In this document: positions 16,948 through 48,586 of the stretch, in pieces
Layout of the letters: each line of letters starts with the position of its first letter
Numbering within the stretch: position 1 is the stretch's first letter
Assembly: GCA_017434775.1 (NCBI GenBank)
Contig: JAFSGG010000066.1
Coordinates: 1 to 56,144 of the forward strand
Direction of reading: 5' to 3'
From: Clostridia bacterium
GTDB taxonomy: Bacteria > Bacillota > Clostridia > Christensenellales > Aristaeellaceae
DNA length: 56,144 nucleotides
Notes under the pieces: generated by a model
What the model saw: only the letters and a program-made list of their open reading frames with translations
What the model was told of the DNA's origin: nothing
Database searches by the model: none
Position numbers and translations under genes: made by a program

Positions 16948-17430
16948 ATGCAGCCTTTGGAGGCCGTGAAAAGAGCCCGGGAGATTTTGCAGGGGATCAC
17001 GCCCCTGAAGCGGGATTGCGGCCGCTATTGCGGTGCTGCCTGCTGCGAGGCGGATGAGGACGGCCAGGGCGGTATGCTGCTGTTTCCCGGGGAAGCGGAA
17101 ATGTATGCGGGGCTGCCGGAAGGGTTCCATTTGACCCCGGACGATGCCGTTTTCCCGGGGGCATGGCTTTTGCAATGCGAAGGATATTGCCCAAGGGATA
17201 TGCGCCCCTTATCCTGCATGCTGTTTCCGCTGCTGCCCACAAAGGAGGCGCCTGTGATGGATCGTCGGGGATGGGCGGTATGCCCCCTGATGCAAAGCGG
17301 CGTGGGGGGATTGCAGAAGGAATTTGCGGAAGCGGTGAAAGCTGCCGGGGATATCCTGTATGCCTGCCCGGAAACAGCTGCATTCCTGGATGCCATTCAT
17401 GCCTATAATAAAAGTTTACAATCATTTTGA
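16948..17430 (+). CDS. YkgJ-like cysteine-cluster protein
   Basis: A 160-residue protein with the spaced cysteines of the YkgJ/CxxCxxCC-type family, thought to bind zinc or an iron-sulfur centre: RDCGRYCGAACCE near residues 24-36, LQCEGYCPRDMRPLSCMLFPLLPT near 71-94, and WAVCPLM near 108-114. No enzymatic motif is visible and the function is unknown. The gene has its own promoter and runs 17 bases into the start of the DNA methyltransferase, with which it may be co-transcribed. Confidence 0.8.
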   Translation: MQPLEAVKRAREILQGITPLKRDCGRYCGAACCEADEDGQGGMLLFPGEAEMYAGLPEGFHLTPDDAVFPGAWLLQCEGYCPRDMRPLSCMLFPLLPTKEAPVMDRRGWAVCPLMQSGVGGLQKEFAEAVKAAGDILYACPETAAFLDAIHAYNKSLQSF

Positions 17431-17447
17431 GAAAGGATGAGCCTGCC

Positions 17448-18665
17448 ATGACCTGGGTGCAAGCGCCTTGTTTTACGGAAGTGCACGGAAACGGCCTGGA
17501 AGGAGCTGCGTTATTTGCCGATGCCCGGGGGGATTTTTCCGCCTGGAAGGGGCAGGTGCAGGTAGTGTATCTGGACCCGCCGTTTATGACCGGGGAAGAA
17601 TTTTCCCTGCGGATGCGCGTGGGCGAAAAGGGCTGGGAAACCGGCAAGGAAGCGCTGGTGCTGCCAGCCTATCAGGATAAGTTTTCCAGCAAGGCGGAAT
17701 ACCTGGCGCTGCTGCGTGCAGCGCTGGAAAATGCCAGGGAACTGCTGAACGAAACCGGCTCCCTCTTTCTGCACCTGGACAGCCGCATGAGCGCTCATGC
17801 CCGGATTTTGTGCGATGAAGTTTTCGGCGAAAGCAATTTTGTGAACGAGATTATCTGGGCCTATCAGTCCGGCGGGCGCAGCATGAAGCGGTTTTCCCGC
17901 AAGCACGACGTGATCCTGTTTTACCGCAAAAGCCGGAAACAGTTTTTTGACATCACCAAAGTGCCCCTGCCCCGGAGCGAAAACCGTTCCAACCATATGC
18001 GCCGCTGCGTGGACGAAAATGGGCGCACGTACCGCACCATTCAGTCCGGCGGCAAAACGTACACCTATTATGATGATGAACCGGTATATCCCGGGGATGT
18101 GTGGGCAGATGTGAGCCATCTGCAGCAGAAGGACCCCCAGCGCACCGGTTACGATACCCAGAAACCCCAGGCTCTTCTGAATCGGATCATCCTGTCTGCC
18201 TCCCGTCCGGGCGATCTGGTTTGTGATCTTTTCGGCGGCAGTGGTACTACGGCTGTGGCGGCGGCTCAAGCTGGCCGACGGTATCTGATTGCGGATATCA
18301 GCCCCCTTTCCCTGAGTGTGACCCGTAAACGCCTGTTGGAAACGGGCCTTACACTGCACATGCCCTGCGACGGCCGGGAGATCCATATGGAAGCGGAAAT
18401 GGTGCCCGGCATTGCCTATCATGACGTGCGGCTTACGGATTATCAGGGCAAGGATGAACAAGTGCAGGGGCTGGATAATGTGGATCAATGGAGCGTTGGC
18501 TTTATGGATAACGGTGTGTTCCATGCCCAGGCATCCGCTGCCCGGCGCAAGCATACCCCGGCCCTGCCGGATTATCTGCAGCTTCCCCAGCTGCGGGGAA
18601 CCCCGGCCATCCTGATTGTGGACGTATATGGCAACCGAACGGTGTGGATTTACAAGGAGGACTAA
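17448..18665 (+). CDS. Site-specific DNA methyltransferase (N6-adenine/N4-cytosine, beta class)
   Basis: A 405-residue amino-methyltransferase. The catalytic motif IV is VVYLDPPFMTGEEF with DPPF at residues 43-46, and the SAM-binding motif I is GDLVCDLFGGSGTTAVAAAQ with FGGSGTT at 262-268; motif IV before motif I defines the beta class. The intervening segment, including WAYQSGGRSMKRFSRKHDVILFY (138-160), is the likely target-recognition part. About 120 further residues follow motif I and are not recognised. No restriction endonuclease or specificity gene is adjacent, so this is an orphan methylase. Start at 17448 follows GAAAGGA by 10 bases. Target sequence unknown. Confidence 0.88.
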   Translation: MTWVQAPCFTEVHGNGLEGAALFADARGDFSAWKGQVQVVYLDPPFMTGEEFSLRMRVGEKGWETGKEALVLPAYQDKFSSKAEYLALLRAALENARELLNETGSLFLHLDSRMSAHARILCDEVFGESNFVNEIIWAYQSGGRSMKRFSRKHDVILFYRKSRKQFFDITKVPLPRSENRSNHMRRCVDENGRTYRTIQSGGKTYTYYDDEPVYPGDVWADVSHLQQKDPQRTGYDTQKPQALLNRIILSASRPGDLVCDLFGGSGTTAVAAAQAGRRYLIADISPLSLSVTRKRLLETGLTLHMPCDGREIHMEAEMVPGIAYHDVRLTDYQGKDEQVQGLDNVDQWSVGFMDNGVFHAQASAARRKHTPALPDYLQLPQLRGTPAILIVDVYGNRTVWIYKED

Positions 18666-18668
18666 CGG

Positions 18669-19454
18669 ATGAAAAATAAGAAAATGCGTTTTATCAGCTT
18701 GCTGGCTGTATTGGCAGTGATGGTGGCCGGTTGGCTGATCTTTGACCGCAGTGAAACCGTGCACGCGGATTCTGCCATCGTTGCCCAAAGCGATTTCAAG
18801 ACCCTGAAAGTGGGCATGGGCGGCCAGCAGGTGCGCCAGATGCAGACGGTGCTGAAGGATCTGGTCTTTTATAGCGGCGCAGTCAACGGCAATTTCAGCC
18901 GGGAATTTGAAACCGCCGTCAAGGATTTCCAGGCGGATTTCGGCATCGAGATTACCGGGCAGATTGATTATGAGCTTTATACCCTGTTGATTGAAGATTT
19001 TTCGGATTTTGCCACGGCAGAGCCGCCCAAAGCAACCAAAGCGCCGGCCCGGGCAACACAAACACCGCAAAAGGGAAGCAATGTGCCCCCGGCCACGGAA
19101 GATCCCTTTGCCGTGGAAGAAGATGAATGGTATACCGATAAGGACCATGTGGCGGCTTACCTGAAAAAGTACGGCAAGCTGCCGGGAAATTACATCACCA
19201 AGAACGATGCACGGAAACTGGGCTGGAACGGCAGCCGCAGCGGCCTGTGGGACGTGGCATACGGCATGAGCATCGGCGGCGACAAGTTCGGTAATTATGA
19301 AGAATTGCTGCCGGTGAAAAAAGGCCGCCAGTATTACGAATGCGATATTGATTTTGACGGCTGGGAAGCCAATGCCAAGCGCATTGTCTATTCCAATGAC
19401 GGCCTGATTTTCTACACCGAAGACCATTACGAAACCTTTGAGGAGATCAAATAA
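18669..19454 (+). CDS. Secreted peptidoglycan-binding barnase-type ribonuclease
   Basis: A 261-residue exported RNase. Residues 1-33 form a signal peptide or N-terminal anchor (MKNKKMRFISLLAVLAVMVAGW, then VHADS). Residues 42-110 are a PG_binding_1 fold (LKVGMGGQQVRQMQTVLKDL; FQADFGIEITGQ). A Pro/Thr/Ala linker (115-145) leads to a barnase domain (153-261) that keeps the catalytic set: Lys178 in NYITKNDARKLGW, Glu224 in YYECDIDFDG, Arg238 in AKRIVYSND, His253 in TEDHYETF. These equal barnase K27, E73, R87 and H102. AAGGAGGA precedes the ATG. The barstar gene follows at once. Likely role: wall-held RNA scavenging or toxicity to other cells. Confidence 0.92.
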   Translation: MKNKKMRFISLLAVLAVMVAGWLIFDRSETVHADSAIVAQSDFKTLKVGMGGQQVRQMQTVLKDLVFYSGAVNGNFSREFETAVKDFQADFGIEITGQIDYELYTLLIEDFSDFATAEPPKATKAPARATQTPQKGSNVPPATEDPFAVEEDEWYTDKDHVAAYLKKYGKLPGNYITKNDARKLGWNGSRSGLWDVAYGMSIGGDKFGNYEELLPVKKGRQYYECDIDFDGWEANAKRIVYSNDGLIFYTEDHYETFEEIK

Positions 19455-19455
19455 A

Positions 19456-19743
19456 ATGAAAAAAATCACGTTATCGGCGGCAGCATGGAAAACCCCGGCC
19501 GATGCCCATCAGGCGCTGAAGGATGCGCTGGGTTTTCCGGAATTTTACGGCAACAATCTGGACGCACTGCACGATTGTCTGACGGATTTGACGGACACCT
19601 GCGTCATTATTGAAGAATGTGCCAAGGCTGCAGAGCAGCTGGGAGAGAAGTGGAGCAAATTTCTGATGGTGTTTTTTGATGCCTGCAGCGAAAATCCCAC
19701 GCTGGATATTCAGTTGGTGCAGGGCAGCGGAGATTATGTATAA
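19456..19743 (+). CDS. Barstar family ribonuclease inhibitor
   Basis: A 95-residue cytoplasmic barstar that should block the barnase encoded one base upstream. The barnase-facing helix is FYGNNLDALHDCLTDL (residues 28-43); both acidic contacts corresponding to barstar Asp35 and Asp39 are present, while barstar Trp38 is His here. The start at 19456 is chosen because AGGAG of the preceding gene's end lies about 9 bases away and upstream residues are not barstar-like. Immediate linkage to the RNase gives the classic toxin/immunity arrangement. Confidence 0.93.
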   Translation: MKKITLSAAAWKTPADAHQALKDALGFPEFYGNNLDALHDCLTDLTDTCVIIEECAKAAEQLGEKWSKFLMVFFDACSENPTLDIQLVQGSGDYV

Positions 19744-19755
19744 AGGAAGATGCAC

Positions 19756-20709
19756 ATGAAATACCTGGATACATTGCTGGAAAAATATCAGGTGCGCAAA
19801 ACAAAAGCCCAGAAAACGGCCTTTCTTGACTGGGCTCAGGAAGAAATACGAAAAATGGGCTATGAACCCTATGTGGAAGAATACAAAGGGGATCTTTACA
19901 AATGCCGCAATCTGATCGTGGGGAATCCGGAAGAAGCGAAGGTCATCTATACCGCCCATTACGATACCCAGCCGGTGATGCCGTTCCCCAATATGGTGTT
20001 CCCCAAGAATTTTCTGGCCACCTTCGGCGCCCAGCTTCCTGTAATTCTGATCATGGTTTTGCTGTGCCGCGGGGTGGTGTGGCTGGCTGGTGTGATCGGC
20101 GGGGAAAATCCTTTCCTGTCCTTCATGCTGACGGAAGCAGGCCTTTTGGCTGTGGTTTTTGGCTTCCTTGCTTTGCTGTTTTACGGCCCGGCCAACAAGC
20201 ACACCGCCAATGACAACACGTCCGGCACGGCCTGCCTGATGGAAATGATGGCTGCGCTTTCGGAAGAAGAAAGAAAGCATGCTGCCTTTATCTTTTTCGA
20301 TCAGGAAGAAAAGGGAAAAGTGGGCAGCCAGATGTTTGCCAAAAAGTATCCGGAACTGCGGAAGAACGCTTATATTTTCAATCTGGACTGTATCGGCGAT
20401 GGGCAGCATATGCTGATTGTGGCCCCGAAAAAAACGCCGGATGAGGAACTGAAGGCATTGGAAGATGCCTTTGCAAGCCCGGAATCTTTTGTGACAGAAG
20501 CGATCACGGCCAAGCATGCCTCTTATAATTCCGATCAGCGGTCCTTCAAAAAAGGCTATGCCCTGGCAGCCATGCACCTGCATCCCACCTTCGGGCTGCA
20601 TTTAAAGCGCATCCATACGAAAAAGGATACCATCTGCGAAGAAGCCAATTTGCAGTATGCGATTGATGGATGCAGAAAATTATTGAAGCAAAAAGCGGAG
20701 GAAATGTAA
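19756..20709 (+). CDS. M28-type zinc peptidase with internal membrane segments
   Basis: A 317-residue protein with the aminopeptidase metal ligands of family M28: His68 in YTAHYDTQP, Asp153 in TANDNTSGTACLME, Glu184-Glu185 in FDQEEKGKVGS, Asp211 in FNLDCIGDG and a C-terminal His in LKRIHTKKDT. Two hydrophobic helices, about 93-115 and 123-143, are inserted between the first and second metal ligands, which would tie the enzyme to the membrane. The ATG at 19756 has AAGGAA 8 bases upstream; one at 19750 is too close. It may belong to the barnase/barstar unit (12-base gap), but a functional link is not shown. Confidence 0.85.
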   Translation: MKYLDTLLEKYQVRKTKAQKTAFLDWAQEEIRKMGYEPYVEEYKGDLYKCRNLIVGNPEEAKVIYTAHYDTQPVMPFPNMVFPKNFLATFGAQLPVILIMVLLCRGVVWLAGVIGGENPFLSFMLTEAGLLAVVFGFLALLFYGPANKHTANDNTSGTACLMEMMAALSEEERKHAAFIFFDQEEKGKVGSQMFAKKYPELRKNAYIFNLDCIGDGQHMLIVAPKKTPDEELKALEDAFASPESFVTEAITAKHASYNSDQRSFKKGYALAAMHLHPTFGLHLKRIHTKKDTICEEANLQYAIDGCRKLLKQKAEEM

Positions 20710-20710
20710 T

Positions 20711-21430
20711 ATGTCAAGACTTGGCGATCTGATTCGCCTGGAACGCACCCGGCAGGGCATGACCCATAAGCAGGTAGCCCGCAAGTGCGGCGTCAGCGAT
20801 AAATACCTGATGGAAGTGGAAGCGGGCACCCGCATCATTCAGGATGAACAGGCCCGGCGTATTCTGAAGGTCATGGGGCTCACCCAGCAGACGGAAGCGG
20901 ATTTTTCCCTGGATGATATTGCCGCCACGGTGGATCTGCAGTCTGCCGTGCCCCAGCTGACACGGGCGGTGGAGAAGAAGGAAAAGCAGCCCGTGGCGGA
21001 AGCCAAGGCGGATCCTGGCGTTTCCGGCTCCATCTGGCTGGATGCACTGGCCGGGGTGCTGAAGCATGTGCCCATTTACAATGCGGTGATGAAGGAAGTG
21101 GGCCATCGGCTGCTGCCCATTACCAACGGCAAAATTGAAGGGGCCAACCCGGACAAGGTGTTTTACTTCATGGCACCGGATAATGACCTGCGGGGCTTTC
21201 GGGTGCAGCGGGGGGATCTGGTGCTGGTGGTGCCGGCCCAGGCGGCAGTGGATGGCGCCATTATGCTTTTGCAAACGCCTCAGGGCCGTGTGCTGCGGAA
21301 GGTGAAGCGGGTGAATGATTATCAGGCCATGCTGCAGAAATACGACGATGGTTTTGAAAGCGAAATCAAAAATTATAACGAAATCATGTTTGTGGGCCGC
21401 TGTGTGCGCCTGGAAGCGGATTTGACGTAA
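20711..21430 (+). CDS. XRE-type regulator with degenerate S24-like domain
   Basis: A 239-residue regulator. Residues 3-58 are a Cro/CI helix-turn-helix (LGDLIRLERTRQGMTHKQVARKCGVSDKYLMEVEAG). A variable linker leads to a C-terminal part, about 145-235, that resembles the S24/LexA fold (GFRVQRGDLVLVVPAQAAVDGAIMLL; GRVLRKVKRV). Where S24 peptidases have the catalytic Ser of a GDSM motif, this has PDNDLRG, so self-cleavage is not expected, although a Lys in RKVKR remains. It follows the M28 gene by one base and ends at a strong terminator, so it may regulate the upstream unit. Ligand and operator unknown. Confidence 0.8.
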   Translation: MSRLGDLIRLERTRQGMTHKQVARKCGVSDKYLMEVEAGTRIIQDEQARRILKVMGLTQQTEADFSLDDIAATVDLQSAVPQLTRAVEKKEKQPVAEAKADPGVSGSIWLDALAGVLKHVPIYNAVMKEVGHRLLPITNGKIEGANPDKVFYFMAPDNDLRGFRVQRGDLVLVVPAQAAVDGAIMLLQTPQGRVLRKVKRVNDYQAMLQKYDDGFESEIKNYNEIMFVGRCVRLEADLT

Positions 21431-45967: not shown

Positions 45968-48586
45968 ATGCGAAATAAACAAAGAATGTTCAATATTCTG
46001 GTGGGACTTTGTATGCTTTTAGTGATGGGTTCAGTTTCTGCGGAATGTGATCACATAATCGATTGGGAGTATTTTGAAACCTATGTGCCCAGCCAAGAGA
46101 ATCCCGCCATGCATGAATGCATCTATTACAGAGTAGATAAATGCAAAATTTGCCCTTATGTCCATGAACATGAACCGGACACTTATGAGGAGTACCATTA
46201 TTTTCTTGATGAAAATGGCGTTTGTTCCGAATGCCAATATCAGGCTGATCCTGCTTGTTCCCATGAAGAGATTGGATATGGAGGTGAAGGTTATTTTATT
46301 GAACCATCTGTAGCATTTACAACAACGCAGCACTATGAGATTAATTTATATGAGATATGCTGTTCAGATTGTGGAAAATTTCTGCGGGAGGAAGAAAATG
46401 GATATTGGGAAAAACACTATTTTGATCATAGGTACAACAATGGTTATTGTATTTGCGGTTGCCCCGATCCCGATATCCCATTGTTGCCACTTACTGTAAC
46501 ATGCCATACTCCTCAAAAAGAAGTAAATATTGGTGAATGGTTTGCTTATAGTTACCAAATAGAAGGTGGTTCGGGGCGCTTTGAAAAAGAGTGGTATGTC
46601 TATAGTGATACTGGTTTATCCGTGCGCAATGTATGGCCACTGAAGGCAGAGAAACCCGGAACTTGGATTGTCCGGTTGACTGTGAAAGATACTGTGACCG
46701 GTGAAATGATCACTGTGCAGTCGGATTCGATCGAGGTTTTGGCGGATTGTATGCATCAAAATATAAAGCCGAAAGATGTATTGACTATTGTAGATAGGGA
46801 AACACCGATTACTGAAACACAGCATTACGTTTTGCAAGAAACGCAATGGCATTGTACAGATTGTGGCGAATTTCTGGAAACGCGCAGCGAAGGACTTTGG
46901 GAAGAACATTGCTATGGTCAGGATGGTGCATGCATCTGCGGTTTAAGGTCATCTGAAATTCTGGATATCCATCTGTCTGTAACGGATAAGGAAGTATGCG
47001 TTGGTGAAACCTTTGGAGTTGAAGCGGTATATTCCGGTGGATCTGGGCAATATGCTCTGGATTGGATGGCTAAAAGCAGCATGGGGCATACTGCTTCCGG
47101 TTATCATAGTATAACGGCGCAAGAGCCGGACTTATGGTATTTTGAACTAACGCTGACGGATACTGTCACAGGTGAAACAGCGAAAGCCCAGTCGAATGTT
47201 ATTACGGTCAGTGATCATTTGTTTGTATGCTCCGAAAACGGTACGGATCGAGAAAATGGAGAAAAGAATAATGCATACTGTGTTAATTGCGGACTTGAAA
47301 TCATTCCTGCTACAGAGGAACCGGATACTTCTGAGATGAACCTTGATTCTGCCAAAGAACGATACAGCATTTATGTGGATGATCCGTATTTTTATCCTCA
47401 GCATGATATGATTATTTTGCGAGAAGGAACTGCTGTCCACTTAAAAGTGTATGATAATTTAACGGACCAGGTATTGCTGGTAGAACAAGTTGAGAATTTG
47501 GATTTTGAACAACTTGAGGAAACTTCCTTTGGAATCTTGACGGATAATCATGTCTTTCATGTTTTTGAGAAATATAATGGGCACTATAATATAGCACTTA
47601 CTTATGATGGGGTGGAAATTGATCGAATTAGGGTGCATTGCAGTTTCAGTGAGGACAATAAATCTACTGATCAGCTACGGTTTGATACAATGAAACTTTT
47701 TGATTGGAAAAAGAAAGGAATGAGGATATCAAACGATTTACAGATTTTTGACTTTACATCAGAGTATAAAAATGACTTACCTCAGACATATCCGAATGGA
47801 TATTACAAAGTATCTATGGAAATATTCAATATATCACCTGCGATTTATGGAGTTTTGGTATATGATGCGAATGATAATCTGATCAAGACATCCTATATCA
47901 ATTCATACTGGAGAGAGTTCTCTGTACCGGGTATGATAGAATATGTGTACTTTGGTTTTGTGGATTTTTGGGATTTCCGAGCAGGCAATACAGAATCCTA
48001 TGCCTGTAAATCGGTTATCAAATTGAATGTGCCTGCAGGGGGGTATATTCGATTTGCCGATCCAATGGCAACCGACGAACTGGCTACAGTGAACTATATT
48101 AATGGAGCAGTATCTTTTTTTTCGACAATGGATAGTATGGAAAGCTTGGTTGATGTTCTGGGAGTCAATGATAAAGCTGCTTTTCGTAAAGCACTGAAAG
48201 AATTGGATTGGGAGGATTTCCGGTCTTCTATTACAGCATTCTATCGACAATCTACGACGGAAGATATCAGAAAGGAGGCAATAAAAGCGGTAGTGAAAGG
48301 TGGTTGGGAAGCCGTTGTTTCAGATAAAGAATTAATGCGTGCAGTATCGTCAGCATTACAGAAAAACTTTATCAGTTTGGGTGTGAATGAATTGGTTGAT
48401 TATGGAATGTTGACATTTAATGTCGGTGTCTATTATTCATTGCACGGAACGGATGCGATTCTCCAAAGCATCGAGTTGATTGATTTATGGAACACTTTGG
48501 TCAAAGTGATAGGGGGGAGCGACTGGTTAAAATGGAGTTTGTCTTTTTCCCACACGCAAACTGAACAGAACAAAAGCCGAGGATGA
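45968..48586 (+). CDS. Large secreted cysteine-rich repeat protein of unknown function
   Basis: An 872-residue protein, not recognised as a whole. A signal peptide (MRNKQRMFNILVGLCMLLVM..., cleavage after SVSA near 25) begins it. Residues 27-97 contain paired cysteines like a zinc ribbon (CKIC, CSEC). Two tandem units follow, 97-258 and 261-415: each has a Cys-rich module (CCSDCGKFLREEENGYWEKH / HCTDCGEFLETRSEGLWEEH, then CICG) and an Ig/PKD-like module ending VTGEMITVQSDSIEV / VTGETAKAQSNVITV. A third CVNCG lies near 438-442. The remaining 430 residues resemble nothing known to me and have no membrane anchor. The gene is visibly AT-richer than its neighbours, with its own promoter and terminator, suggesting acquisition by transfer. 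Start has AAGGAGC upstream. Confidence 0.75.
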   Translation: MRNKQRMFNILVGLCMLLVMGSVSAECDHIIDWEYFETYVPSQENPAMHECIYYRVDKCKICPYVHEHEPDTYEEYHYFLDENGVCSECQYQADPACSHEEIGYGGEGYFIEPSVAFTTTQHYEINLYEICCSDCGKFLREEENGYWEKHYFDHRYNNGYCICGCPDPDIPLLPLTVTCHTPQKEVNIGEWFAYSYQIEGGSGRFEKEWYVYSDTGLSVRNVWPLKAEKPGTWIVRLTVKDTVTGEMITVQSDSIEVLADCMHQNIKPKDVLTIVDRETPITETQHYVLQETQWHCTDCGEFLETRSEGLWEEHCYGQDGACICGLRSSEILDIHLSVTDKEVCVGETFGVEAVYSGGSGQYALDWMAKSSMGHTASGYHSITAQEPDLWYFELTLTDTVTGETAKAQSNVITVSDHLFVCSENGTDRENGEKNNAYCVNCGLEIIPATEEPDTSEMNLDSAKERYSIYVDDPYFYPQHDMIILREGTAVHLKVYDNLTDQVLLVEQVENLDFEQLEETSFGILTDNHVFHVFEKYNGHYNIALTYDGVEIDRIRVHCSFSEDNKSTDQLRFDTMKLFDWKKKGMRISNDLQIFDFTSEYKNDLPQTYPNGYYKVSMEIFNISPAIYGVLVYDANDNLIKTSYINSYWREFSVPGMIEYVYFGFVDFWDFRAGNTESYACKSVIKLNVPAGGYIRFADPMATDELATVNYINGAVSFFSTMDSMESLVDVLGVNDKAAFRKALKELDWEDFRSSITAFYRQSTTEDIRKEAIKAVVKGGWEAVVSDKELMRAVSSALQKNFISLGVNELVDYGMLTFNVGVYYSLHGTDAILQSIELIDLWNTLVKVIGGSDWLKWSLSFSHTQTEQNKSRG

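What the first reader, a model, noticed from the sequence alone, without database searches (positions are those of the whole stretch)
18669..19743. Wall-binding secreted barnase with adjacent barstar immunity gene
A signal peptide, a PG_binding_1 domain and a barnase domain with all four key residues (Lys178, Glu224, Arg238, His253) are fused, and a barstar gene starts one base after the stop. Known barnase is secreted free; attachment to peptidoglycan could make a surface-held RNase for nutrient recovery or contact killing of neighbours. Seen: domains and residues. Known: barnase/barstar chemistry. Inferred: wall tethering and antagonism.
Basis: partly seen in the sequence, partly recalled or inferred. 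Interest (0 to 1): 0.75.

Follow-up and report, generated by a model that had tools for sequence, protein, structure and literature searches.

The report
Wall-binding exported barnase with barstar inhibitor
A genus of gut Clostridia makes an exported RNA-cutting enzyme (barnase) carrying a domain that probably holds it in the cell wall, next to the gene for its inhibitor; it is a stable, inherited trait that looks more like surface digestion than like a weapon.

Summary
ORF 18669-19454 (+) encodes a signal peptide, one PG_binding_1 domain, a linker and a barnase (PF00545); a barstar gene (PF01337) starts one base after its stop. Lys178, Glu224, Arg238 and His253 are present. The domain is still under purifying selection.

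The fusion is genus-wide: 27 of 29 genus genomes. In 24 further genus loci read, a barstar is adjacent in 24 and the same DNA methyltransferase gene lies upstream in 23. Barnase is the most conserved part of the protein. That does not look like a polymorphic toxin.

Best explanation: an exported, wall-retained RNase for nucleic-acid scavenging, with barstar protecting the cytoplasm. Wall binding, activity and role are inferred. Contact killing is not supported. Barnase-barstar is well known; this is a new domain architecture of a known kind.

The parts
18669..19454 (+). PGB-barnase gene, 261 aa
   Evidence: AGGAGG 8 bases before the ATG, read
18669..18767 (+). signal peptide, residues 1-33 (hydrophobic core, then VHA|DS)
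   Evidence: [AV]-x-[AG] before the PGB domain in 24 of 24 proteins; cleavage itself inferred
18822..18986 (+). PG_binding_1 domain, residues 52-106
   Evidence: pLDDT 93-97 in the blocks over residues 51-100
18987..19142 (+). low-conservation linker, residues 107-158
   Evidence: 41% mean identity; pLDDT < 50 at residues 117-142
19143..19451 (+). barnase domain, residues 159-261; K178, E224, R238, H253 kept, R59->Y210, R83->A234
19456..19743 (+). barstar gene, 95 aa, no signal peptide seen; D35 and D39 equivalents kept, W38->H, E76->D
   Evidence: GAGGAG in the end of the barnase gene, read
17427..18665 (+). N6_N4 DNA methyltransferase gene, found upstream in 23 of 24 other genus loci read
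19750..20709 (+). M28-type peptidase gene, found downstream in 10 of 24 other genus loci read
20711..21430 (+). HTH/S24-like regulator gene, found downstream in 18 of 24 other genus loci read

Best explanation
The protein is exported by its signal peptide and probably cut by signal peptidase I just before the PGB domain. The single PG_binding_1 domain then keeps it in the cell wall, and the linker holds the barnase outwards, where it cuts extracellular RNA (food RNA, lysed neighbours, matrix) for nucleotide scavenging. Barstar, made in the cytoplasm from the next gene, neutralises any barnase that folds before export. Shown by sequence: domain order, gene pair, export signature, genus-wide conservation, purifying selection. 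Inferred: cleavage, wall binding, catalytic activity, barstar binding and the nutritional role. Replacement of Arg83 in the window's small clade suggests altered or lowered activity there.
For: Domains. Both domains in 24 of 24 aligned proteins. Fusion in 27 of 29 genus genomes. Export site in 24 of 24. Barstar within 500 bases of all 24 PGB-barnases, with D35 and D39 equivalents invariant in those 24. In the same genome PGB domains are attached to two L,D-transpeptidases, a VanY, a cell-wall hydrolase (Hydrolase_2) and a NAGPA protein, so the domain sits on wall proteins there. dN/dS 0.03-0.11 in the barnase domain of the window clade. Stable locus with one barnase and one barstar. Related barnases with lipobox-like N-termini and three GH10 xylanase-barnase fusions suggest that surface or digestive use is a recurrent theme.
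Against: Wall binding by one PGB repeat is untested. Ala at the Arg83 position removes a residue described as vital for RNA binding and activity (PMC9321962, passage), so the window enzyme may be weak. No nucleotide-uptake gene was recognised among the immediate neighbours scanned. dS in the rate test is high and partly saturated. The lipobox count is a heuristic. In several relatives the stretch between hydrophobic core and cleavage-like site is long, so a membrane-anchored form is not excluded.
Confidence: 0.6

Rival explanations
1. Wall-held antibacterial toxin: the barnase kills neighbouring cells on contact and barstar is immunity against siblings.
For: Toxin-then-immunity gene order; barnase with barstar immunity is a known polymorphic-toxin tip, and PGB1 domains are named as possible adhesion parts of toxins (PMC3482391, passages).
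Against: No delivery or translocation domain found by Pfam; barnase is the most conserved part of the protein; one barnase and one barstar found in the genome; same locus in the genus loci read; no relative found in phages or viral contigs, and the 4 plasmid-collection records match the barnase part only.
Confidence: 0.12
2. Freely secreted RNase: the PGB domain is only a folding or processing part, removed or not wall-binding, and the enzyme acts in the medium like Bacillus barnase.
For: Only one PGB repeat; a long low-conservation linker that proteases could cut; the genus member G030 has the same locus without a PGB domain.
Against: PGB domain kept in 27 of 29 genus genomes with dN/dS 0.11-0.21 in the window clade.
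Confidence: 0.2
3. In the window's clade the barnase has become a weak or non-catalytic RNA-binding surface protein.
For: R83A in 4 of 139 distinct barnases, all in one clade; the window has also lost the Arg-Lys that its three relatives carry just before that position. His-less barnase domains exist in tandem proteins, so such domains are tolerated in this family.
Against: Glu73, His102, Lys27 and Arg87 equivalents kept; strong purifying selection; barstar kept, which would be needless for a dead enzyme (inference).
Confidence: 0.08

Closest known systems
Barnase (Bacillus amyloliquefaciens) and binase
   Same: Ungapped alignment to barnase residues 8-109; Foldseek's best solved matches, target TM mostly 0.70-0.74, identity about 50%; Lys27, Glu73, Arg87, His102 kept; barstar gene adjacent.
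   Different: Extra PG_binding_1 domain and linker; Arg59 is Tyr, Arg83 is Ala.
Barstar (PF01337)
   Same: Pfam match 2.3e-18; Asp35 and Asp39 equivalents kept.
   Different: Trp38 is His, Trp44 is Leu, Glu76 is Asp, which may go with Tyr in place of Arg59 on the enzyme (inference).
PG_binding_1 wall and spore proteins (SleB, CtpB; YkuD and VanY proteins of the same genome)
   Same: Same PGB module; the best solved PGB matches are spore cortex-lytic enzyme and CtpB; YkuD and VanY carriers.
   Different: The attached catalytic domain is an RNase, not a wall hydrolase, transpeptidase or protease.
Tox-Barnase polymorphic toxins with Imm-Barstar (PMC3482391, passages seen)
   Same: Toxin-then-immunity gene order and the same two families.
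   Different: No repeat, secretion-system or variable-tip architecture; the paper itself says that simple barnase-barstar pairs might be an incipient order without notable polymorphism.

Membership tests
Barnase / microbial RNase (PF00545) | Profile match over the cut-off | tested here: met
   63.7 bits against a cut-off of 24
Barnase / microbial RNase (PF00545) | Catalytic Glu73 and His102 | tested here: met
   E224, H253
Barnase / microbial RNase (PF00545) | Arg83 in the active site (a common feature, not a criterion of the Pfam family) | tested here: not met
   Ala234; 135 of 139 distinct barnases have Arg
Barnase / microbial RNase (PF00545) | RNase activity | not testable with these tools
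   needs purified protein
Barstar (PF01337) | Profile match; acidic helix residues Asp35 and Asp39 | tested here: met
Barstar (PF01337) | Binds and inhibits the cognate barnase | not testable with these tools
   no complex prediction or assay available
PG_binding_1 protein (PF01471) | Profile match over the cut-off | tested here: met
   48.8 bits against 23; 24 of 24 aligned proteins match at E <= 0.001
PG_binding_1 protein (PF01471) | Binds peptidoglycan | not testable with these tools
   inferred from the family and from other PGB proteins of the genome
Polymorphic toxin system | Conserved N-terminal part with a variable C-terminal toxin tip | tested here: not met
   barnase 76.5% and PGB 62.5% mean identity; the same tip in 24 of 24
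Polymorphic toxin system | Extra toxin or immunity cassettes | tested here: inconclusive
   one barnase, one barstar in the 77% complete genome; other toxin and immunity families not searched

The most novel reading that the evidence does not exclude
A genus-specific, wall-anchored surface RNase that arose by adding a PGB domain to an exported barnase, perhaps once. Within it, one small clade has replaced an otherwise near-invariant active-site arginine (and other interface residues have changed on both partners), giving a natural experiment on barnase catalysis and barstar recognition in a protein that works at the cell surface.
Probability: 0.45. Interest if true: 0.45.

Novelty: new variant of a known kind. 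Interest (0 to 1): 0.35.

Why it matters
Barnase-barstar is a textbook protein pair, yet what secreted barnases do in nature is little known (my own knowledge). A genus-wide wall-targeted form, together with lipobox-like and xylanase-fused forms in other gut bacteria, points to RNA digestion at the cell surface and makes that testable. The natural Arg83 replacement and the Arg59-to-Tyr change, set against the matching barstar positions, offer evolved variants for one of the best-studied protein-protein interfaces.

Tried and rejected
Mobile or phage origin: no match in the phage collection; in viral contigs 2 stretches matched a pattern but none encoded a relative; 4 records in the plasmid collection match the barnase part only, three of them of 2.6-4.1 Mb and one of 0.6 Mb.

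Sporulation protein: the PGB domain resembles SleB (far below that model's cut-off) and Spo0A_C matches in 29 of 29 genus genomes, but I found nothing that links the barnase to spores; left open, not pursued.

Decayed gene: rejected for the barnase domain by dN/dS 0.03-0.11.

PGB-barnase fusions outside the genus: none among 115 distinct non-PGB barnases scanned with Pfam (19 families listed, no PG_binding family), nor in the order (396) and class (391) searches. Those two used E <= 1e-58, so a fusion with a divergent barnase would be missed; the family search lists only its best matches; the 115 are mostly top-scoring or hand-picked hits, not a random sample.

Single origin of the fusion: not proven. 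On the barnase-barstar tree the PGB label needs 2 changes, because the non-PGB L040 falls inside the PGB rows, on a weakly supported branch (77).

Promoter and terminator scan: numbers found are close to the shuffles (5 against 3.8; 9 against 6.4), so no weight is put on it.

Papers: searches listed no paper whose title or abstract start describes a PGB-barnase or xylanase-barnase fusion; I saw listings and abstract starts, and passages of PMC3482391, PMC8837141, PMC4207830 and PMC9321962. Searches were searches on Arg83. The library excludes most subscription journals.

Full report
Observation. The ORF 18669-19454 on the + strand gives 261 residues. Pfam finds PG_binding_1 at residues 52-106 (E 8e-13) and Ribonuclease at 160-260 (E 2.4e-17); the next gene, starting one base after the stop, is a barstar (E 2.3e-18). 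The barnase part aligns without gaps to residues 8-109 of B. amyloliquefaciens barnase, so residue numbers map directly: Lys27, Glu73, Arg87 and His102 are K178, E224, R238 and H253. Two more active-site or interface residues are changed: Arg59 is Tyr210 and Arg83 is Ala234.

Arg83. Among 139 distinct barnases collected from genus, family and public genomes (one domain counted per protein), 135 have Arg at this position. The 4 with Ala are the window's protein and L033, L034 and L035, which form one small clade. The three relatives have Arg-Lys just before the position; the window has Trp-Glu. PMC9321962 (passage) lists Lys27, Ser57, Arg59, Arg83 and Arg87 as vital for RNA binding and activity; PMC8837141 and PMC4207830 (passages) put Arg83 in the barstar interface, the latter in contact with Asp39. 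Tyr in place of Arg59 is ordinary: 24 of 24 PGB-barnases and 60 of 115 others have it. On the barstar side Asp35 and Asp39 are kept in 24 of 24 partners, Trp38 is His in 22 and Tyr in 2, and Glu76 is Asp in 22 and Leu in 2. The barnase domain of the four is under strong purifying selection (pairwise dN/dS 0.03-0.11, against 0.11-0.21 for the PGB part; dS partly saturated), so the gene does not look like a decaying one.

Distribution. PF00545 barnases are common in this family: 227 of 300 genomes. The fused form is not. Of the two genus exceptions, G030 has a barnase without PGB and in G256 no barnase was found. In the order (396 genomes) and class (391 genomes) only genus members matched full length, at a strict limit of 1e-58. 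In a tree of 121 barnase-barstar pairs the 24 PGB rows plus G030's (L015) and L040, a lipobox-like barnase of a Bacillota MAG, form one group (SH-aLRT 99); L040 falls inside the PGB rows on a weak branch (77), so the label needs 2 changes on that tree. One gain of the PGB domain is the simplest reading, not a proven one.

Locus. Of 24 other genus loci read (23 with the fusion, and G030), the same N6_N4 methyltransferase lies upstream in 23 (the other, L129, ends at a contig edge), a barstar is adjacent in 24, the HTH/S24-like gene is found in 18 and the M28 peptidase in 10. Gaps in the window are 3, 1 and 6 bases, so the genes are probably co-transcribed; the barstar start has a GAGGAG inside the end of the barnase gene (read). 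One barnase and one barstar were found in the genome (77% complete).

Export and wall. The N-terminus has a hydrophobic stretch in all 24 distinct PGB-barnases, and an [AV]-x-[AG] site, mostly before an acidic residue, precedes the PGB domain in 24 of 24, although these N-termini share only 35% mean identity. This points to signal-peptidase cleavage; in several relatives the spacer before the site is long, so a membrane-anchored form is not excluded. The own genome has 39 PG_binding_1 matches, the window's included. I found 14 further ORFs with a PGB hit in the stretches taken and ran Pfam on 13 of them: two carry an L,D-transpeptidase domain, one VanY, one a cell-wall hydrolase (Hydrolase_2) and one NAGPA; the other eight have only PGB-type or PGB-type and SH3 domains among the families listed, apart from two names below their own cut-offs. 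The module thus sits on wall proteins in this organism. AlphaFold2 (24 rows) gives the PGB part pLDDT 93-97 and the barnase part 64-86 by blocks of ten, except one block of 48 (residues 204-212 are below 50); pTM is 0.45. Foldseek's best solved matches are barnases (target TM about 0.7).

Interpretation. A wall-retained exported RNase with a cytoplasmic inhibitor fits best. A weapon fits less well: the supposed toxin tip is the most conserved part (76.5% against 62.5% for PGB), Pfam shows no delivery module, no second barstar was found, and the locus is stable. Zhang et al. 2012 (PMC3482391, passages; author name recalled) say that simple barnase-barstar pairs might be an incipient toxin-immunity order without notable polymorphism and mention PGB1 among domains that might help toxins adhere, so the parts and the idea of adhesion are known.

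Verdict. Observation confirmed, interpretation partly supported. New architecture of a known kind with one unusual active-site change; interest moderate.

Noticed in passing
L072:4780-6354, L081:4870-6417, L085:8-1264: Rumen Bacteroidales encode a GH10 xylanase fused to a C-terminal barnase, with a barstar next door. Of 18 genomes in that family, 3 match over xylanase and barnase (the other two at 82 and 87% identity to L072, one cut by a contig edge) and 3 over the xylanase part only, at E <= 1e-110.
   Followed up: partly
L016, L021, L024, L098, L137-L151 (tandem barnase proteins): In 19 of 19 proteins with two barnase domains (several fetched because of their long frames), one domain lacks the catalytic His102: the second in 13, the first in 6; in 4 of the 13 a His sits one residue later. 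This looks like a recurrent active-plus-inactive pairing; the role of the second kind of domain is unknown.
   Followed up: partly
115 non-PGB barnases collected from relatives: 57 of 115 have a lipobox-like N-terminus by a simple rule, which suggests that lipoprotein barnases may be common in gut Clostridia and relatives.
   Followed up: partly
18 loci, e.g. L004, L017, L018, L031: No barstar within 500 bases of the barnase in 18 of 139 distinct cases; some stretches are short or end at contig edges, so absence is not proven.
   Followed up: no
window 17427-18665: A DNA methyltransferase, with no restriction gene recognised among the neighbours scanned, is after barstar the most constant neighbour of the barnase in the genus loci read (69-88% identity).
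   Followed up: no
window 46001-48000: GC falls to 0.40, against 0.46-0.58 in the other 2-kb steps of the window; possibly acquired DNA.
   Followed up: no
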